Shown: positions 37,522 through 50,874 of the stretch, piece by piece
How positions within the stretch are numbered: the first letter of the stretch is position 1
How the letters are laid out: every line of letters begins with the position of its first letter
DNA from: Rhodococcus sp. RD6.2
GTDB lineage: Bacteria > Actinomycetota > Actinomycetes > Mycobacteriales > Mycobacteriaceae
DNA: 64,000 nucleotides
Reading direction: 5' to 3'
Assembly (NCBI RefSeq): GCF_001040705.1
Contig: NZ_CVQP01000001.1
Span: 178,324-242,323 of the forward strand
Position numbers and translations under genes: made by a program
Notes under the pieces: generated by a model
What the model was told of the DNA's origin: nothing
The model's database searches: none
Seen by the model: only the letters and a program-made list of their open reading frames with translations

Positions 37522-38940
37522 CTACGACGGATAAGGCTGGCGTGCGCTGAGATTCAGGTCGACCCGAACGGGCCGCCCGATCTGGGGGAACGCCCGCTGC
37601 GCACAGTCGGTGCGCTCGCAGATCTTGCAGCCGGCGCCGATCGGATCCGGTGACATCTGCTCGTCGAGTCGCAGGCCACGGGAGTACACGAGCCGGTCTG
37701 CGTGGGTGATGTCGCAGCCCAGCCCGATCGCGAAGCTACGTTGAGCCGTTCCGTAGGGACGGGGGTCGTCGTCGGTGGTGCGGGCGATCCACAGGTACGT
37801 CCGGCCGTCGGGCATCTGCGCGACCTGAGTGAGAATCCGCCCGGGCGTCCCGAACGCGTCGTGCACCACCCACAACGGGCAGCTACCACCGATTCGGGAG
37901 AAGTGGAACGCGGTGGCGGACTGTCGCTTCGATATGTTCCCGGCGCGGTCGGTGCGGACGAAGAAGAACGGGATGCCGCGCCGGGTCGGGCGCTGCATGG
38001 TCGAGAGCCGGTGGCACACCGTTTCGAAGCCGACCTCGAACTGCAGTGCCAGCATCTCGATGTCGTAGTGCAGGCGTTCCGTCGCGTCCAGGAACGAGTT
38101 GTACGGCAACAGCAGTGCCCCGGCGAAGTAGTTTGCGAGTCCGATCTTCGCCAGCTCTCGGGAGCCCTCTCCGAGACCGGTGGCGGACTCGACGAGCGCG
38201 TCGATCGTGGCCGACTGGGTGAGGAAGGCGAGCTGGGTTGCGATCTGGAACGCCCGCTGTCCGGGTGTCAGGTGCCGGGACAGGGTAAGGATGCGGTTCG
38301 CCTCGTCGTACGAGCGTTTCGGTCCCGGCCGGTCGGGCGGATCGGTGCGCAACCGGACGACGATGTCGTGTTCCGATTCGAGGAGTGCCGTCAGCTGGTT
38401 GTCCAGAGAGCCGGGCCGTAGGCCGCTCTCCGTGAACAATCGCTCGGCGGCGTCGTCGAGTTCGGCGATGTGATTGTGCCTGTCGTAGAAGAAGTCTCGA
38501 ACTTCCTCGAACGGCATCGGCATCGAAGGCTCCGAGGTCGCCTCCGACGGCGCGGACAGATGGACGCTGTACTGCTCCAGCCGTTCGGTCGCTGCCAGCA
38601 GTCGGCGGTGGACTCCGACGAGCGCTGTTCCGATCTCCGGCATCCTGGCGACCAGTTCGTCCACCATCGCCGGGCTGGGCGCCGCCGCGCCGATCGCGCG
38701 GAGGACGTCATGGAGATCTGCCGCCAGCCTCGCGTCCTGGTCGGCCGCGAAGAACTGCGGATCGAGATCGAAGGTCGCGTTCAGTTTCAGCAGGACCGGC
38801 ACTGTCAGCGGACGCTGGTCGTTCTCCAACTGGTTGACGTAACTCGCCGAGAGGTCGAGCGTCCGGGCCAGTTCCAGCTGGGTCAGCCCGCGCTCCTCTC
38901 GCAGTCGTCGCAGCCGTGGTCCGCCGTAGATCTTCTGCAT
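37522..38940 (-). CDS. prpR: PrpR/RamB-family transcriptional regulator of propionate metabolism
   Basis: A 472-residue regulator. An N-terminal Cro/CI-type helix-turn-helix ([21 protein letters not shown], split at the turn) is followed by an IrrE/ImmA-like domain and a C-terminal domain with the Cys residues GGSCPLW and [10 protein letters not shown], matching the Fe-S cluster ligands described for mycobacterial PrpR, which senses short-chain acyl-CoA. The ATG at 38940 has GAAGGA about 8 nt upstream; the reading frame stays open for 45 more codons upstream, into a cobalamin riboswitch. Divergent from prpDBC, which it very likely activates. Confidence 0.92.
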
Positions 38941-39099
38941 CCTGCGATCCTTCGGGGTCGAGTCCAGAAGCCGCCCGCGAATGCGCACGTCCGACCAGGC
39001 CCATCGCCCCACCCGGTACGCGGGCACGACGACACCTGGATCGGGCACGCACACCCAGTCCACGAGGCGGCACACCGCCGGGCACGGCGTACCCGGCGC

Positions 39100-39290
39100 A
39101 GCGGGCAGGTCTTCGGACTCACAGGCGCTCGCGTGTGAGGCGAACCTACTGGCCGTCGCTTCCCGGACTCGCGTCCAGTGCTGGTGACGGCGGTCGTTCC
39201 TGCATACCGCTGCGGGACAGTTCCGGACTCACACCGGATTCCCTCTCGTGCCCTCGGGCACTTCGACGCCGCCGCGACCTTCGGGACTCC
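39100..39290 (-). ncRNA. Cobalamin (B12) riboswitch in the prpR leader
   Basis: Read on the minus strand: hairpin GTGCCCGAGGGCAC, then AGGGAATCCGGTGTGAGTCC, then GGAACTGTCCCGC, and near the 3' end the B12 box GAGTCCGAAGACCTGCC. These are the conserved core elements of cobalamin riboswitches in the correct order and spacing. Just downstream (39077-39099) CGCCGGG and CCCGGCG form a hairpin, followed by GGCGG-TGTG-CCGCC (39066-39079); these are candidate expression-platform stems. The next gene on this strand is prpR, about 135 nt further. There is no second riboswitch toward prpD. Confidence 0.9.
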
Positions 39291-39324
39291 TCGCGGTCGA
39301 GGCGGCGAACCAACTGCACCGTCG

Positions 39325-39330
39325 ATTCTA
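39325..39330 (-). promoter_or_regulatory. Putative -10 box for the riboswitch-prpR transcript
   Basis: TAGAAT on the minus strand, about 40 nt before the first conserved riboswitch hairpin. No clear -35 match. Confidence 0.4.
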
Positions 39331-39362: not shown

Positions 39363-39502
39363 CTGCGAACTCGCCTGTTCTGCACAGTGTGTGGGGGCGG
39401 ATCGGGCGGGTTCGCAGCATTCGCAGAATTCGCCGACACACACCACCGAATTACGCAGGTTCAGTCTCTTCCCGTCGCGTCGCGTCCTCCATACGCTGCG
39501 AA
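39363..39502. promoter_or_regulatory. prpD promoter region with repeated TTCGCAG elements
   Basis: TTCGCAG occurs at 39411, 39420 and, as TTCGCCG, at 39429: three tandem copies with a 9-nt period. Inverted copies (CTGCGAA) lie at 39363-39369 and 39496-39502. This resembles a multi-site operator and is the best candidate for PrpR binding between prpR and prpD. The sequence is not the classical RamB box, so assignment to PrpR is inference. Confidence 0.5.
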
Positions 39503-39575: not shown

Positions 39576-41096
39576 TTGAAGACGCATCCCGTTCGCACCT
39601 ACCGCTCCGCCGAGGACTTCCCGCGCAGTGAGCACCTCGCGTGGAAGATCGCCGAGGTCGCGACCGATCCCGTCGAGGTGTCCGCGGACGTCGCCGAGAT
39701 GATCGTCAACCGGATCATCGACAACGCCGCCGTCGCCGCGGCGTCCGTGACCCGCCGCCCGGTCGCCAACGCGCGGGCGCAGGCGCAGTCGCATCCGTAC
39801 AGCCGGTCATCGTCGGAGTCGCACGGATCGACTGTGTTCGGTGTCGATGGCACGTTCTCGCCGGAATGGGCGGCGTGGGCCAACGGTGTCGCGGTGCGTG
39901 AGCTCGACTTCCACGACACCTTCCTTGCCGCCGAGTACTCGCACCCGGGCGACAACATCCCGTCGATCCTCGCCGTCGCTCAGCACGCCGGCCGCACCGG
40001 CAACGACCTGATCCGCGGCCTCGCCACCGGCTACGAGATCCAGGTCGACCTGGTCCGCGCCATCTGCCTGCACGAGCACAAGATCGACCACGTCGCGCAC
40101 CTCGGCCCCTCCGCGGCCGCAGGTATCGGCACCCTGCTCGGACTCGACACCGAGACCGTCTACCAGGCGATCGGTCAGGCGCTGCACACCACCACCGCGA
40201 CCCGTCAGTCGCGCAAGGGCGAGATCTCCAGCTGGAAGGCATACGCCCCGGCGTTCGCCGGCAAGATGGCCGTCGAGGCCGTGGACCGCGCGATGCGCGG
40301 CGAGGGCGCCCCGTCCCCGATCTGGGAGGGCGAGGACGGCGTCATCGCGTGGCTGCTCGGCGGCCCGAAGGCGGAGTACAACGTGCCGCTGCCCGGCCCG
40401 GGCGAGGCGAAGCGCGGCATCCTCGACACCTACACCAAGGAGCACTCGGCCGAGTACCAGAGCCAGGCCCCGATCGACCTGGCGTTCCGCCTGCGCGAGC
40501 GGGTCGGCGACCTGAGCCAGATCGCGTCGATCGTCCTGCACACCAGCCACCACACCCACTACGTGATCGGCACCGGCTCGAACGATCCGCAGAAGTTCGA
40601 CCCCAAGGCGTCGCGCGAGACCCTCGACCACTCGATCATGTACATCTTCGCGGTCGCGCTGCAGGACGGCACCTGGCACCACGAGCGGTCCTACGCTCCG
40701 GATCGGGCGCAGCGTCCCGACACCATCGAGCTGTGGCAGAAGATCTCCACCGCCGAGGACCCGGAGTGGACCCGTCGCTACCACTCCACCGACCCGAACG
40801 AGAAGGCCTTCGGTGCCCGCGCCGAGGTCACCCTCAAGAGTGGTGAGGTCATCGTCGACGAACTCGCCGTCGCCGACGCGCACCCGCTCGGCGCTCGCCC
40901 GTTCGCCCGCGACCAGTACATCGCGAAGTTCCGCACCCTCGCCGAGGGCGTCATCGCACCGGCCGAGCAGGACCGCTTCCTCGATGCCGCGCAGCGCACC
41001 CCCGAGCTGAAGGCCGGCGAGCTGAACCAGCTCACCTTCACCGTCTCGGACGAGGTGCTCGGCCGCTCGCCGCGCTCGCCCAAGGGCCTCTTCTGA
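39576..41096 (+). CDS. prpD: 2-Methylcitrate dehydratase
   Basis: A 506-residue enzyme of the MmgE/PrpD family that dehydrates 2-methylcitrate to 2-methyl-cis-aconitate. Visible family blocks include [26 protein letters not shown] (DFxDT, active-site region), [16 protein letters not shown] and [30 protein letters not shown]. The start is a TTG: it is in frame, lies 8 nt after a GGAGGA ribosome site, gives the normal PrpD length, and the next in-frame ATG is far inside. The stop shares a base with the prpB start (TGATG). Confidence 0.95.
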
Positions 41097-42034
41097 TGAC
41101 CGGACTCATCGCCGCCGCGACCTCCGGAGCCGAGAAGCGCGCCGCCTTCCGTGCGAGCCTGACGTCGGAGGGCATCACCCGGCTGCCGGGCGCGATCAAC
41201 CCGCTGACGGCGAAGCTCATCCAGGAGATCGGCTTCGAGGGCGTCTACGTCTCCGGCGGCGCCTTCTCCGCCGGCCTCGGTCTGCCCGACATCGGACTCA
41301 CCACCCTCACCGAGGTCACGGCGCACAGCGCCCAGATCGCCGGCGTCACCGACCTTCCCGTCCTGGTCGACGCCGACACCGGATTCGGTGAGCCGATGTC
41401 CGCGGCCCGCACCGTCCTCGCCTTCGAGGACGCGGGCATCGCGGGTCTGCATCTCGAGGATCAGGTCAACCCGAAGCGGTGCGGCCATCTCGACGGCAAG
41501 GCGATCGTGCCGACCGACGAGATGGTGCGTCGGCTGCGGGCCGCCGTGACTGCGCGTCGCGACCCGAACTTCGTGATCTGCGCTCGCACCGACGCCGCTG
41601 GGATCAGCGACACGACCGCCTCCGGCAAGAGGGGCATCGACGCGGCCATCGAACGGGCGAAGGCGTACGCCGACGCCGGCGCCGACATGATCTTCACGGA
41701 GGCGTTGCACACCGAGGCCGACTTCGAGAAGTTCCGCGCTGCTGTGGACATCCCGCTGCTCGCGAACATGACGGAATTCGGCAAGTCGCAGCTCATTCCG
41801 GCACAGACGCTGCAGAACATCGGCTACAACGCCGTGATCTACCCGGTCACCACCCTCCGTCTCGCGATGGGGGCGATCGAAGCCGGGCTGCGCGAAATCC
41901 ACGCGAAGGGCACGCAGGAAGGTCTCGTCGATCAGATGCAGACCCGATCGCGGCTGTACGAACTGCTCGAGTACGAGCGCTACAACGAATTCGATTCCGG
42001 AGTCTTCAACTTCACCCTCAGCAGGAGCCAGTAA
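41096..42034 (+). CDS. prpB: 2-Methylisocitrate lyase
   Basis: A 312-residue lyase splitting 2-methylisocitrate into succinate and pyruvate. The catalytic loop KRCGHLDGK (with PKRCGH, the signature of the isocitrate lyase superfamily) and metal-binding DADTGFGE are intact. TNSL-like gate and C-terminal YPVTTLRLAMGAIEAGL are present. One-base overlaps with both neighbours (TGATG before, TAATG after) show tight translational coupling of prpDBC. Confidence 0.97.
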   Translation: MTGLIAAATSGAEKRAAFRASLTSEGITRLPGAINPLTAKLIQEIGFEGVYVSGGAFSAGLGLPDIGLTTLTEVTAHSAQIAGVTDLPVLVDADTGFGEPMSAARTVLAFEDAGIAGLHLEDQVNPKRCGHLDGKAIVPTDEMVRRLRAAVTARRDPNFVICARTDAAGISDTTASGKRGIDAAIERAKAYADAGADMIFTEALHTEADFEKFRAAVDIPLLANMTEFGKSQLIPAQTLQNIGYNAVIYPVTTLRLAMGAIEAGLREIHAKGTQEGLVDQMQTRSRLYELLEYERYNEFDSGVFNFTLSRSQ

Positions 42035-43158
42035 TGACCGAGACCGCAACCCCCACGATCTACAAGGGTCTGGCCGGCGTTGTCGTCGACACCACCGCCA
42101 TCTCGAAGGTGGTACCCGAGACCAACTCGCTGACCTACCGCGGCTACGCGGTGCAGGACCTCGCCGAGCACTGCAGCTTCGAGCAGGTCGCCTACCTGCT
42201 CTGGAACGGCGAGCTCCCCACCGACGCCCAGCTCGAGCAGTTCGTCCAGCGTGAGCGGGCCAACCGTCGCGCCGACCGGTCGCTGCTGCAGCTCGTGGCG
42301 AAGCTGCCGGAGAACTGCCATCCGATGGACGTGGTCCGGACGGCCATCAGCTACCTCGGTGCCGAGGACCCGGAGGAATGGGACAACGACCCGAAGGCAT
42401 TGCGGGCCAAGTCGCTTCGCATGATGGCGGTGCTGCCGACCATCGTCGCGGCCGACCATCGCCGCCGCCACGGCCTCGAGCCCGTCGCGCCGCACAGCCA
42501 CCTGGGCTTCGCCGAGAACTTCCTCAACATGTGCTTCGGGAAGGTGCCGGACAAGGAGATCGTCAAGGCCTTCGAGGTCTCGCTGATCCTGTACGCGGAG
42601 CACAGCTTCAACGCGTCCACGTTCGCGGCGCGCGTCGTCACGTCCACCCTCTCGGACATCTACAGCGCCGTCACGGCAGCCATCGGCACCCTCAAGGGCC
42701 CACTGCACGGTGGCGCGAACGAGGCGGTCATGCACGACATGATCGAGATCGGCGAGCCCGAGAACGCCGAGGAGTGGATGCACGGCAAGCTTGCCCGCAA
42801 GGAGAAGGTGATGGGCTTCGGTCACCGCGTCTACCGCAGCGGTGACTCCCGCGTTCCGACGATGCGCAAGGCGTTCCTCGACGTCGCCGAGCACACCGGC
42901 GGAGACAAGTGGGTCGAGATGTACGAGATCCTCGAGCGCACCATGAACGACGCCACCGGAATCAAGCCGAACCTCGACTTCCCCACGGGCCCGGCCTACT
43001 ACCTGATGGGCTTCGACATCGAGGTGTTCACTCCGATCTTCGTGATGAGCCGCATCACCGGATGGACGGCCCACATCATCGAACAGGGTGAGTCGAACGC
43101 GCTCATCCGGCCGCTCAGCGAGTACACCGGCGTGCCTCAGCGCGCGGTGGGCGCCTGA
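42034..43158 (+). CDS. prpC: 2-Methylcitrate synthase
   Basis: A 374-residue member of the citrate synthase family that condenses propionyl-CoA with oxaloacetate. The catalytic residues are in LYAEHSFNASTFAARV (His), GPLHGGANEAVM (His) and FPTGPAYYLMGF region (Asp in PNLDFP). MGFGHRVYR is the family signature. The short length, gene order and pairing with prpD and prpB support methylcitrate rather than housekeeping citrate synthase. A small GC hairpin (43159-43172, GCGCC and GGCGC) follows the stop. Confidence 0.96.
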   Translation: MTETATPTIYKGLAGVVVDTTAISKVVPETNSLTYRGYAVQDLAEHCSFEQVAYLLWNGELPTDAQLEQFVQRERANRRADRSLLQLVAKLPENCHPMDVVRTAISYLGAEDPEEWDNDPKALRAKSLRMMAVLPTIVAADHRRRHGLEPVAPHSHLGFAENFLNMCFGKVPDKEIVKAFEVSLILYAEHSFNASTFAARVVTSTLSDIYSAVTAAIGTLKGPLHGGANEAVMHDMIEIGEPENAEEWMHGKLARKEKVMGFGHRVYRSGDSRVPTMRKAFLDVAEHTGGDKWVEMYEILERTMNDATGIKPNLDFPTGPAYYLMGFDIEVFTPIFVMSRITGWTAHIIEQGESNALIRPLSEYTGVPQRAVGA

Positions 43159-43813: not shown

Positions 43814-44839
43814 CTAGGACAACTCACTGCGCAGAAGTTCGGCCCCAGCGGCGAGCGCGACCATCTTGTCTCGTGCGACGCGTCGATTGAGTGGCGCCAT
43901 ACCGCAATTGGTACTCGGGTAGAGCTTGTCCGCGTCAACGAACGGGAGGGCGCGACGAAGGGTTGCGGCGACCTCTTCGGACGTCTCGATGGCGTCGCTC
44001 GCCACATCGATCGCTCCTAGCATGACCTTCTTGCCTCGAAGCAATTCGATCAGGTCGACAGGTACCCGCGAATTGTGACTCTCCAGCGACACGATGTCGA
44101 TCGACGACTGTTGCAGCAGTGGAAAGGACTCTTCGTATTGGCGCCACTCGGCCCCGAGCGTTGCCTTCCAGTCGGTGTTGGCCTTGATGCCGTAGCCGTA
44201 GCAGATGTGAACGGCAGTCTCGCAGCTCAGCCCTTCGGTCGCACGCTCGAGCGCCGCTACGCCCCAGTCCTTCAGTTCGTCGAAGAACACGTTGAACGCG
44301 GGCTCGTCGATCTGGATGATGTCGACGCCGACTGCTTCCAAGTCCTTTGCTTCTTGGTTCAGGATGGTTGCGAACTCCCATGCGAGCTTTTCGCGACTCT
44401 TGTAGTGGTCGTCGTAGAGCGTGTCGATCATCGTCATGGGGCCGGGCAGGGCCCATTTGATCGGCTGGTCCGTCGCTGCTCGAAGACGAGCCGCATCGGC
44501 TGCGAACACAGACTTCTCGCGGCTCACCGCGCCGACAACCGTGGGGACGCTCGCGTCGTAGCGGTCGCGAATGCGCACGGTCTCGCGCCGGTCGAAGTCG
44601 ACACCACTGAGGTGCTCGATGAACGTGGTCACGAAGTGCTGACGCGTCTGTTCACCGTCACTGATGATGTCGAGCCCGGCACGACGCTGATCGTGTGCCG
44701 CGAGTGTCTGGGCGTCGAGTTTCCCTTCGCGCAGTTCGTCGTCTCGCAACTTCCACGGCGACCAGAGCTTCTCCGGCTCCGAAAGCCACGAGGGCTTGGG
44801 CAGGCTACCGACGATGGAGGTGGGCAGGAGTGCGTTCAT
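43814..44839 (-). CDS. mesD: Core-type B12-independent methionine synthase (MesD-like)
   Basis: About 341 residues, half the size of MetE and corresponding only to its C-terminal catalytic domain. Zinc-ligand motifs are visible as AVHICYGYG (His-x-Cys) and PSTNCGMAPL (Cys), and the homocysteine/folate region SDGEQTRQHFVTTF is present. The neighbouring DUF1852 gene identifies it as MesD of the MesD-MesX system, reported for Acinetobacter to make methionine without the N-terminal MetE domain, with an unusual methyl donor and a need for oxygen. The ATG at 44839 has AAAGG upstream. Co-transcribed with mesX, 26 nt apart. Confidence 0.88.
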   Translation of the reverse strand: MNALLPTSIVGSLPKPSWLSEPEKLWSPWKLRDDELREGKLDAQTLAAHDQRRAGLDIISDGEQTRQHFVTTFIEHLSGVDFDRRETVRIRDRYDASVPTVVGAVSREKSVFAADAARLRAATDQPIKWALPGPMTMIDTLYDDHYKSREKLAWEFATILNQEAKDLEAVGVDIIQIDEPAFNVFFDELKDWGVAALERATEGLSCETAVHICYGYGIKANTDWKATLGAEWRQYEESFPLLQQSSIDIVSLESHNSRVPVDLIELLRGKKVMLGAIDVASDAIETSEEVAATLRRALPFVDADKLYPSTNCGMAPLNRRVARDKMVALAAGAELLRSELS

Positions 44840-44865
44840 CTCTGGAACCTTTCGGTCTCGAACGG

Positions 44866-45837
44866 TCAGGCGGATTGCTTGGTAGCCCACTGTTCAAGAA
44901 CAGCGCCATACGGTTTCATGAGGTTCACCTCGGTGAACTTTCCCTGTGTGGTCGCGAGGTGGGTGCGCTCGACACGGTCGTAGCTCACTTGCGGAAGTGA
45001 ATAGTTGCCATTGTCGAGACTCGGCTGGTACACCTCCGACGCCGCAGCGTTCGCGTTGTAGATCTCGGGACGATAGATCTTCTGAAACGTCTCCATCGTC
45101 GCGATCGTTCCCGCGAGAGCGAGGAACGAATAGTCGTTGAGCAAGTCACCGCGGTGGTAGAAGGCCAACGGAGCGACGGACCCCTGAGGCATGAAGTACC
45201 GAACCCTGAGCCCCATCTTCCCGAAGTACTGATCGGTGAGCGACTTCTCATCCGCCACGTACTCCGCCCCGAGAATCGGGTGGAAATTCGTGAGCCGGTG
45301 GTACGTCCTGGACGTCGAAACACTGATGCAGATGACCGGTGGCTGCGAGAAGCGTTCGCGATACTCGTCCGATTCGACGAAACGCTGAAAGACCTGCCCG
45401 TGCAGATCGCCGAAGTCGCTGGGGATTCCCGTCGCTTGATGCCCCGGGAGTCGAACACTGAAATCGTAGTCGCGAATGTACGAGGAGAAGTTGTTTCCGA
45501 CGATGCCCTCCGTGCGGGCGCCCGTGGTGGTGTCGACGATGCCGACGTCGAGCACCTCGATCACCGGAAACGCCGCGTCATCCCCGACCGACGCGAGATG
45601 CAGGTCAACCGAGACGATGTCGAGTTGGAGTGCGTAGCGGTCACCACGCGGATTGTCCCAGTGCACCAACTCGTTGACACGGGTGTTCATCATCGTCACA
45701 GCGTTGCGCAGATTCTGCCGACGATTCTCGCCGCGTGCGAGATTCGCGAAGTTCGTCGTGCTGCGCGAGTTGGTCGACGGGGTGTAGTCCTCGTTGAAGC
45801 GCGTAGTGTCGATGCTGAAAACACATTCGTTCGTCAT
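44866..45837 (-). CDS. mesX: DUF1852 protein, MesX-like partner of MesD
   Basis: A 323-residue soluble protein. The opening SIDTTRFNEDYTPSTNSRSTTNFANLARG and the C-terminal TQGKFTEVNLMKPYGAVLEQWA are distinctive of DUF1852, a family encoded almost always beside a short MetE-like gene. In published genetic work the family member MesX is needed for MesD activity; its own chemistry is unknown. The ATG at 45837 matches the conserved N-terminus. A LysR gene lies 231 nt upstream on the same strand. Confidence 0.88.
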   Translation of the reverse strand: MTNECVFSIDTTRFNEDYTPSTNSRSTTNFANLARGENRRQNLRNAVTMMNTRVNELVHWDNPRGDRYALQLDIVSVDLHLASVGDDAAFPVIEVLDVGIVDTTTGARTEGIVGNNFSSYIRDYDFSVRLPGHQATGIPSDFGDLHGQVFQRFVESDEYRERFSQPPVICISVSTSRTYHRLTNFHPILGAEYVADEKSLTDQYFGKMGLRVRYFMPQGSVAPLAFYHRGDLLNDYSFLALAGTIATMETFQKIYRPEIYNANAAASEVYQPSLDNGNYSLPQVSYDRVERTHLATTQGKFTEVNLMKPYGAVLEQWATKQSA

Positions 45838-46023
45838 GCTGACCCGTTGCCCCAATCATGTGCGGTGAGAGCAGCGACAAGCGCGTCATTGCACGGTTCA
45901 CTGCCTGAGATTTCGCAGCACTTCAACCGAATACCCGATGGTCCAGGGCCGAACTTTCAGGCCGAGAACACCTGGGAGGCGACTATCCGAAGTGGCGTGG
46001 AAGTCAGTGTAAGTAGCCCCGCA

Positions 46024-49848: not shown

Positions 49849-50555
49849 GACGCCGGCCAGGGCTGGGTGTTCAGGGCGGTGTCCCAGAACAGGAGCTCGT
49901 ACCGCGTCGCGACAGTGAACGCGGTGACCATCGCCTCCCGCTCCGCCTCGCCGGCGACCTCGGCCGCGGCGTCGACCAGCGACCGCGCGGTCGCCGCGGA
50001 CTGCTGGAACTCCTCGGCGTCATAGGTCGTGACCCACTGGGCGTACGGGTGCCCCGGATCTGCCGCGAGCACCTCCGCGGCGCTCGCGGCCAGACCACGT
50101 CCCACGTCGGCGTAGATCCAGAAACACGGCAGCGCCGCCGCCGCGCCGACCGCGTACGGCTGCGTGGCCGCGGTTGCGATCAGGTACGACACGTAGCCGA
50201 GGCACGCCTGCGACGGTTCCGGCTCACCGGCGCGCGGCGGCAGCAGGCCCCCGTCGAGCAGATCCGCGTGCAGGGCCGTTTCCACGGTGGCCGCAGCCGC
50301 GGACGAGTTCGCCCAGAACGCCGCGGTCTGCGGGTCAGGCGACTTCGACGCGAGGATGGCCAAGGCCTTCGAGTATCCGGCGAGGTACAGCGAATCCTGC
50401 TCGACGTAGGTGCGGAACACCTCGAGCGGCAGCGTGCCGTCGCCGAGACGGCGCAGAAACTCGAGGTCGTCGATCGCGACCCGCAGGGTCTTCGTCCGAT
50501 CCCAGAGGTACTCGGTGAAGCCTCCCGATTCGGTGACAGGCGCGCGCAAAACCAT
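49845..50555 (-). CDS. tenA: TenA-family aminopyrimidine aminohydrolase/thiaminase II
   Basis: A 236-residue enzyme of thiamine salvage that hydrolyses aminopyrimidine products of degraded thiamine to HMP. The catalytic Cys144 (AALPCFWIYADVG), the early EQDSLYLAGYSKAL helix and the C-terminal Glu in TRYELLFWDTAL are present. The start ATG lies within the base of the TPP riboswitch, so its translation is likely blocked when TPP is bound. First gene of the operon with the ABC importer. Confidence 0.94.
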   Translation of the reverse strand: MVLRAPVTESGGFTEYLWDRTKTLRVAIDDLEFLRRLGDGTLPLEVFRTYVEQDSLYLAGYSKALAILASKSPDPQTAAFWANSSAAAATVETALHADLLDGGLLPPRAGEPEPSQACLGYVSYLIATAATQPYAVGAAAALPCFWIYADVGRGLAASAAEVLAADPGHPYAQWVTTYDAEEFQQSAATARSLVDAAAEVAGEAEREAMVTAFTVATRYELLFWDTALNTQPWPAS

Positions 50556-50633
50556 GACATCCCTTCGTCAGCATTACCTGGACAGGTTCTCGGGTCTCAT
50601 CTCAGCCCCGCGTTCGCGGAGCACCCCGTGTCA
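50555..50633 (-). ncRNA. TPP riboswitch controlling tenA and the importer
   Basis: Minus strand: ACGGGGTGCT, GGCTGAGATGAGACCC, GAACCTG, GGTAATGC and GAAGGGA follow in the canonical Thi-box order. P1 can form between TGACA (50633-50629) and TGTCA (50559-50555), which includes the A of the tenA start codon; the GAAGGGA (50566-50560) is both aptamer 3' strand and the only ribosome site. TPP binding should hide ribosome site and start together. The 240 bp between this and the chorismate mutase gene hold nothing else recognisable. Confidence 0.95.
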
Positions 50634-50874
50634 GAACACCGACGACGGTATCAGCACCTGATCGGGCGGCCGGAGGGGCTGTGCCAGGGAATGCGGCCAC
50701 CTCGGGTTCCTCGGTCCCCTCGGACGCCGATCACCCGAACGAAGTCACGACGACACGTCGTCGGTGCAGCCGTTGTCGGTGGGAAAGGGTAGGCCGGGAC
50801 GCCGAGGGGCACTCGAGGCCGCGGCAAAGTAGATCCACCGGCTCCGCCCGGATTGTGGGTCTGCCGGTCCCGGC

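What the first reader, a model, noticed from the sequence alone, without database searches (positions are those of the whole stretch)
39066..39330. Cobalamin riboswitch on the leader of prpR, the methylcitrate-cycle regulator
The riboswitch core is read clearly on the minus strand and the first gene after it is prpR, not a B12 synthesis or transport gene. Known biology makes this meaningful: propionyl-CoA can be used by the B12-dependent methylmalonyl route or by the B12-independent methylcitrate cycle. If B12 lowers prpR, it would silence prpDBC when the methylmalonyl route is available. B12 control of a transcription factor for the competing pathway, rather than of the enzymes, appears uncommon; I do not know of a description.
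Basis: partly seen in the sequence, partly recalled or inferred. Interest (0 to 1): 0.88.

Follow-up and report, generated by a model that had tools for sequence, protein, structure and literature searches.

The report
B12 riboswitch controls methylcitrate regulator prpR
In a bacterium related to Rhodococcus triatomae, the gene for PrpR, which likely turns on the vitamin-B12-free route for burning propionate, carries a B12-sensing RNA element in its leader, so that B12 would likely shut this route off when the B12-dependent route can run; the same element also sits before prpR in a second genus, where it appears to have arrived separately.

Summary
Rfam's Cobalamin model matches 39105-39261 on the minus strand at 76.4 bits (cut-off 31.5), in sense with and 164 nt before prpR (37522-38940), which is divergent from prpDBC. 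Against Rhodococcus triatomae BKS 15-14, aptamer and platform differ at 2.9% and 1.7% of sites, the last 108 nt of the leader at 28.7% and prpR fourfold sites at 32.7%: the RNA is under selection. The element is about 81% identical to B12 leaders of one-carbon and methionine genes in relatives and appears inserted between an old prpD-side operator and prpR. In a second genus it lies directly before prpR, with prpD next, in 8 of 30 loci scanned, and with metE between in 2 more. The genome also encodes methylmalonyl-CoA mutase, metH and a metE without the switch. Most likely mechanism: a B12 OFF switch that lowers PrpR and, through it, prpDBC. Ligand binding, direction and readout are untested. 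In M. tuberculosis B12 represses prpR and prpDC by a mechanism left open (PMC8196197). My searches found no description of a prpR riboswitch.

The parts
37522..38940 (-). prpR, methylcitrate-cycle regulator (HTH_3 + Peptidase_M78 + ScfRs), 472 aa from ATG 38940
38941..39330 (-). promoter box, leader and 5' region of prpR holding the riboswitch
39325..39330 (-). TAGAAT, candidate -10 box; a TANNNT box lies 81-100 nt before the aptamer core in all 10 prpR leaders with the switch; no sigma-70-type promoter passed the scan
39303..39317 (-). GCAGTTGGTTCGCCG, start of the homology to metE and glyA B12 leaders
39105..39261 (-). cobalamin riboswitch aptamer (RF00174, 76.4 bits)
39210..39220 (-). P5/L5 (CUG-UCCCG-CAG), cytidines expected to kiss L13
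   Evidence: role by analogy to PMC11260477
39105..39120 (-). B12 box region (GAGTCCGAAGACCTGC)
39077..39097 (-). platform hairpin, 9 pairs, GCC loop; 6 of 9 pairs have changes on both sides
39052..39069 (-). P13/L13 hairpin, loop CGUGGACU at 39064-39057, candidate kissing partner of L5
39066..39079 (-). GGCGG/CCGCC hairpin that excludes P13; proposed alternative state
   Evidence: 95% of cells paired, no covariation
38941..38953 (-). ribosome-binding region of prpR (GAAGGATCGCAGG before ATG)
39409..39502 (.). prpD-prpR intergenic block shared with relatives, on the prpD side of the element
39576..41096 (+). prpD, 2-methylcitrate dehydratase (TTG start)
41096..42034 (+). prpB, methylisocitrate lyase
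42037..43158 (+). prpC, 2-methylcitrate synthase (open frame from 41479; start approximate)

Best explanation
The leader of prpR carries, on the coding strand of the gene, a cobalamin riboswitch that is predicted to lower PrpR when adenosylcobalamin is plentiful and so would likely switch off the prpDBC methylcitrate genes. Shown here: the aptamer, its platform, its place and strand, its selective conservation, and its presence on prpR in a second genus. Inferred: B12 binds the aptamer, L5 kisses L13 (39064-39057), the P13 hairpin forms in place of the 39079-39066 hairpin, and prpR expression falls through blocked translation, Rho termination or both. PrpR, inferred to activate prpDBC as in M. 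tuberculosis, then falls and takes the divergent prpDBC operon down, leaving propionyl-CoA to the B12-dependent methylmalonyl route, which this genome encodes. Only the prpR side carries the RNA, so B12 would reach prpDBC through the regulator. The element likely came from a metE- or folate-gene-type B12 leader and was likely inserted together with its -10 box.
For: Rfam hit 76.4 bits in sense with prpR. Aptamer 4 of 140 and platform 1 of 58 aligned sites differ from R. triatomae BKS 15-14, the last 108 nt of the leader 31 of 108, prpR fourfold sites 0.327 of 260. Platform hairpin: 99.5% of cells paired, 6 of 9 pairs with changes on both sides; for the whole tested structure 0 of 500 shuffles reach the paired percentage or the covariation score, and slid structures pair in at most 45.2% of cells. 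The L13 loop matches in length and GG position the loop tested by mutation in the M. tuberculosis metE switch, a translational OFF switch (PMC11260477, abstract and passages). A second genus has the switch directly before prpR in 8 of 30 loci (Rfam 68.7-80.8 bits); the one of these put in the PrpR tree, G107, falls in another clade than the window. mutA and mutB present. In M. tuberculosis B12 lowers prpR mRNA, and PrpD and PrpC protein become undetectable (PMC10924821, passages).
Against: No binding or expression data for this leader. The 108 nt before the start codon are barely more conserved than fourfold sites, and folding showed no clear switch at the ribosome-binding site, so the readout is unknown. 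No intrinsic terminator and no sigma-70-type promoter were found. P13 has no two-sided change, the alternative hairpin no covariation, and the count of further pair types is not above shuffles (495 of 500 reach it). Most prpR leaders examined lack the element: 99 of 100 regions in my first sample and 20 of 30 loci in the second genus. In M. tuberculosis B12 represses prpR although only the metE and ppe2 riboswitches are reported there, so repression may not need this element.
Confidence: 0.8

Rival explanations
1. The element is a leftover of a lost metE- or folate-gene-type leader: a promoter and riboswitch that came to lie next to prpR and may still bind B12 but no longer matter for PrpR.
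For: The element is about 81% identical to B12 leaders of other genes in relatives. The higher-scoring, riboswitch-linked metE of G002, G004 and G005 is not found in this genome, and model R1 finds no second strong copy at 1e-20. The last 108 nt of the leader are poorly conserved.
Against: Aptamer and platform show about ten times fewer differences than fourfold sites. The same element sits directly before prpR in a second genus. It has a -10-like box upstream and faces prpR.
Confidence: 0.1
2. The riboswitch is an ON switch or senses another corrinoid form, so that B12 raises rather than lowers PrpR, or PrpR represses prpDBC.
For: Direction cannot be read from sequence alone, and the readout region is poorly conserved.
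Against: The platform is that of the metE leaders of relatives, and the M. tuberculosis metE switch is OFF (PMC11260477). B12 lowers prpR and prpDC together in M. tuberculosis (PMC8196197, PMC10924821).
Confidence: 0.07
3. The RNA acts mainly as a short RNA that ends before prpR, while prpR is made from a promoter that bypasses the aptamer.
For: The 108 nt between platform and prpR are poorly conserved; premature termination in B12 leaders is reported in M. tuberculosis (PMC11260477).
Against: No TANNNT box lies between the aptamer and the start codon; the only other one in 39420-38941, TAGGTT at 39148, is inside the aptamer. A start at the old operator block would also pass through the aptamer.
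Confidence: 0.05

Closest known systems
metE B12 riboswitch of Mycobacterium tuberculosis (class I, translational OFF; PMC11260477)
   Same: Same aptamer family, an L5-L13 kissing loop with the same loop layout, and a B12-independent route as its target
   Different: There the target is the enzyme gene metE; here it is the regulator of a whole pathway. The readout at the start codon is not resolved here.
B12 repression of prpR-prpDC in M. tuberculosis (PMC8196197, PMC10924821)
   Same: Same genes and same expected logic
   Different: Only metE and ppe2 riboswitches are reported there; the authors say that whether the methylcitrate genes share the metE mechanism needs study.
Listeria aspocR: B12 riboswitch controlling the transcription factor PocR (PMC9943018; the name aspocR is recalled)
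   Same: A B12 riboswitch that sets the level of a transcription factor
   Different: That one controls an antisense RNA and lets a B12-dependent pathway run; this one lies in sense in the leader and is expected to silence a B12-independent pathway.
Cobalamin regulons of Sun et al. 2013 (PMC3766115)
   Same: Their class of isozymes that replace B12-dependent enzymes
   Different: The passages I saw name B12 synthesis, B12 transport, cobalt transport and isozymes; the terms prp and methylcitrate have no occurrence in the main text.

Membership tests
Cobalamin riboswitch (RF00174) | covariance model score above the curated cut-off | tested here: met
   76.4 vs 31.5 bits
Cobalamin riboswitch (RF00174) | B12 box and L5 cytidines with an L13 partner downstream | tested here: met
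   39120-39105, 39220-39210, 39064-39057; P13 stem 88.5% of cells paired but no two-sided change
Cobalamin riboswitch (RF00174) | lies in the 5' leader in sense with the gene | tested here: met
   same strand, 164 nt before ATG; overlapping mechanical ORFs have no Pfam match; the transcript itself is not mapped
Cobalamin riboswitch (RF00174) | binds adenosylcobalamin and changes expression | not testable with these tools
   needs in-line probing and reporters
PrpR (ScfRs regulators) | HTH_3, Peptidase_M78 and ScfRs domains | tested here: met
PrpR (ScfRs regulators) | next to the methylcitrate genes and distinct from RamB | tested here: met
   divergent from prpDBC; RamB model 562 bits, below its 700 cut-off; a separate paralogue at 48% identity on C7; tree, in which the RamB label is mine
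PrpR (ScfRs regulators) | activates prpDBC | not testable with these tools
   inferred from M. tuberculosis (PMC10924821, passages)
B12-repressed stand-in for a B12-dependent route | genome holds both routes | tested here: met
   two MM_CoA_mutase matches at C5:439806-443260; prpDBC in the window

The most novel reading that the evidence does not exclude
A portable promoter-plus-riboswitch element, shared by metE, one-carbon (glyA, MTHFR) and transporter genes, has captured the methylcitrate regulator at least twice by different routes: insertion before a divergent prpR in the R. triatomae lineage, and through a metE-prpR-prpD operon that then lost metE in a second genus. One B12-sensing RNA thus decides, through a transcription factor, between the two routes for propionyl-CoA.
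Probability: 0.6. Interest if true: 0.72.

Novelty: new variant of a known kind. Interest (0 to 1): 0.62.

Why it matters
Propionyl-CoA from cholesterol and odd-chain fats must be cleared by either a B12-dependent or a B12-independent route. B12 was known to repress prpR and prpDC in M. tuberculosis, with the mechanism left open (PMC8196197). Here an RNA switch on the regulator itself is seen in relatives, which gives a testable mechanism and shows how a B12 leader may be moved to pull a new pathway into the B12 regulon.

Tried and rejected
A conserved GTG after the platform (39063) looked like the start of a small upstream ORF. I dropped it: the letters are part of the L13 loop, and the frame is interrupted in the relative (by eye). 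A simple SD-blocking pair in the window (CGAUCC with GGAUCG, by eye) is not the same in BKS 15-14, and free and forced folds gave no clear two-state picture, so the readout is left open. The riboswitch tree has weak inner support; I use identities and BLAST extents rather than its branching for the origin. A donor copy in the same genome was sought and not found by model R1 at 1e-20 with stricter filters. The metE-linked PrpR of G318, G412, G400, G281 and G324 form another clade and are not counted as prpR leaders; G412 and G400 gave no PrpD match at 1e-150. The genus of G107 is unnamed in the tool; Nocardia is my guess from genome size and is not used as evidence.

Full report
What is there. 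A scan of the window against all Rfam families gives a Cobalamin riboswitch at 39105-39261 on the minus strand, 76.4 bits against a cut-off of 31.5. The next gene on that strand is a 472-residue protein, ATG at 38940, with HTH_3, Peptidase_M78 and ScfRs domains. The RamB model scores it below cut-off. Of 7 aligned PrpR proteins, window included, 6 begin with this Met; in the seventh the match starts one residue later. On the other strand lie prpD (TTG 39576), prpB and prpC. It is therefore prpR of a divergent prpR/prpDBC locus. Two mechanical ORFs cover the element on the same strand and have no Pfam match.

Selection. I aligned the leader with that of BKS 15-14 and counted: aptamer 4 of 140 aligned sites differ, platform 1 of 58, the last 108 nt of the leader 31 of 108; between the -10 box and the aptamer core 9 of 79 differ with 9 gap columns. 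Fourfold-degenerate sites of prpR differ at 0.327 of 260. The aptamer and platform are held fast, the rest less or hardly. The one platform change keeps its pair (U-G to U-A).

Platform. After the aptamer come a 9-pair hairpin (39097-39077) and a P13 hairpin (39069-39052). I tested them on 29 leaders of this type (24 distinct) from prpR, metE, glyA, MTHFR and two unassigned places. The first hairpin is paired in 99.5% of cells and 6 of 9 pairs change on both sides; for both helices together 0 of 500 shuffles reach the observed pairing or covariation score, 6 of 500 reach the number of pairs changed on both sides, and 495 of 500 reach the number of further pair types. P13 is paired in 88.5% of cells with no two-sided change. 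A GGCGG/CCGCC hairpin that excludes P13 is kept in 95% of cells, without covariation. In the M. tuberculosis metE switch L13 spans C255-U262 with GG at 258-259, and its pairing with L5 was tested by compensating mutations; that switch is a translational OFF switch (PMC11260477, abstract and passages). The loop here, CGUGGACU, has the same length and GG position. No intrinsic terminator and no sigma-70-type promoter pass the scan, though TAGAAT lies at 39330-39325 and no TANNNT box lies between aptamer and start codon.

Where it came from. In the Prescottella, Speluncibacter and Rhodococcoides loci measured, the prpD-prpR gap is 171-214 nt, in G002 and G004 165 and 167, against 635 here and 860 in BKS 15-14. 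A block of 91-101 nt from the gaps of L044-L046, L049 and L050 (72-78% identical) is kept next to prpD here (about 39502-39409), so the rest looks inserted on the prpR side; G002 and G004 gave no match to the window's gap. From the -10 box through the platform (39332-39043) the element is 81.2% identical over 308 nt to the B12 leader in L195, which stands before a methylenetetrahydrofolate reductase ORF. From just after the box (39318 or 39317) it is 81.5% identical over 292 nt to the metE leader of G005 and 81.0% over 295 nt to the glyA leader in L045. G002, G004 and G005 of the same genus have metE with this riboswitch beside the prp locus. G000 and G001 lack that metE and keep a lower-scoring metE about 9 kb from a RamB-like gene in G000, where one search found no switch on that contig; R1 finds one hit at 1e-20 in G000, the prpR one.

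How widespread. R1, a model built from 11 such riboswitches, was run on 100 upstream regions of prpR that I chose: 1 of 100 had real matches (G107, 148.6 and 124.5 bits; next best 10.6). The window and G001 are extra. I then searched 150 genomes of the genus of G107 (89 with a match at 1e-190) and scanned the 30 loci returned, one per genome for the best matches. 8 of 30 have the riboswitch directly before prpR with prpD following on the same strand, the prpR-prpD gap ranging from about 190 to 990 nt; 2 of 30 have metE between; 20 of 30 have neither. prpB and prpC were checked and found downstream in 3 of the 8 (G107, G026, G404). Rfam confirms all 8 at 68.7-80.8 bits. All 10 leaders (8 plus G000 and G001) share a TANNNT box 81-100 nt before the aptamer core, a GCAG(T/C)TGGTTC start and the platform. 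In the PrpR tree the window and BKS 15-14 group with Prescottella, Speluncibacter and Rhodococcoides, while G107 groups elsewhere with the C14 copy of G026 (100/95) (of the eight only G107 was included). Two arrivals are the simplest reading.

Mechanism. The genome encodes methylmalonyl-CoA mutase subunits and metH, and has other cobalamin riboswitch matches before a periplasmic binding protein and CbtA. If B12 lowers PrpR, and PrpR activates prpDBC as its role in M. tuberculosis suggests, then B12 closes the methylcitrate route when the B12-dependent route can run. In M. tuberculosis B12 strongly lowers prpR and prpDC RNA independently of the carbon source used, and the authors state that whether the methylcitrate genes share the metE mechanism requires further study (PMC8196197, passages); PrpD and PrpC protein become undetectable (PMC10924821, passages). 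Two riboswitches, metE and ppe2, are reported there (PMC4428469, passages; PMC11260477, abstract). I did not scan that genome.

Weak points. Nothing here shows ligand binding or direction. The 108 nt before the start codon are nearly as divergent as fourfold sites, and folding of this part gave no clear two-state picture. Rho termination and blocked translation are both open. The element is rare: most prpR upstream regions that I examined lack it.

Literature. Searches for prpR, methylcitrate, propionyl-CoA, propionate with riboswitch, and with Rhodococcus or Nocardia, and for regulon studies gave no description of a riboswitch on prpR; only open-licence papers were searched, and I saw listings, abstracts and passages, no whole paper. 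The main text of a large regulon survey has no occurrence of prp or methylcitrate (PMC3766115). In Listeria a B12 riboswitch controls the regulator PocR through an antisense RNA (PMC9943018, passages), so control of a transcription factor by a B12 riboswitch is not new in itself; sense control of a competing pathway's regulator appears to be.

Verdict. A canonical aptamer with an unusual and well-conserved target. New variant of a known kind, interest 0.62.

Noticed in passing
window 43814-45855 (-): MesX (PF08908, 517.5 bits) followed by a short MetE-like methionine synthase (PRK09121, 650 bits), likely the MesD-MesX oxygen-dependent, folate-independent methionine synthase (name recalled), beyond prpC where some relatives keep metE.
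   Followed up: partly
window 50543-50638 (-): TPP riboswitch, 57.2 bits, just above its cut-off of 54.3.
   Followed up: no
L183 6152-6294 (-), L045 1460-1611 (+), L195 18581-18731 (-): B12 riboswitches of the metE type before serine hydroxymethyltransferase (L183; L045, split over two frames) and before a methylenetetrahydrofolate reductase ORF (L195): folate one-carbon supply may be under B12 control.
   Followed up: partly
L152 8459-9138; L228 3057-3773; L206 3220-3959; L227 5826-7578; L177 6563-7113: Pairs of divergent B12 riboswitches; in G107 one faces prpR and the other a FecCD permease and a periplasmic binding protein.
   Followed up: partly
L178-L182: Riboswitch, metE and a PrpR-like regulator on one strand in five genomes; these regulators form their own clade with G020 as neighbour, and two of the five genomes gave no PrpD match.
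   Followed up: partly
L156 5529-5603 (+), 9779-9845 (-); L155 4764-4836 (+), 7180-7247 (-): Short, weaker B12-type elements (38.6-50.2 bits with R1) before periplasmic binding protein or FecCD permease genes close to the prp locus.
   Followed up: partly
G000 C9:183466-183650, C2:132970-133115, C11:238500-238659, C5:558283-558354: Other cobalamin riboswitch matches of this genome (90.3, 40.4, 30.5, 25.3 bits) before a periplasmic binding protein, CbtA, an AAA/ChlI-type chelatase ORF and CobN; the last two are below the cut-off.
   Followed up: partly
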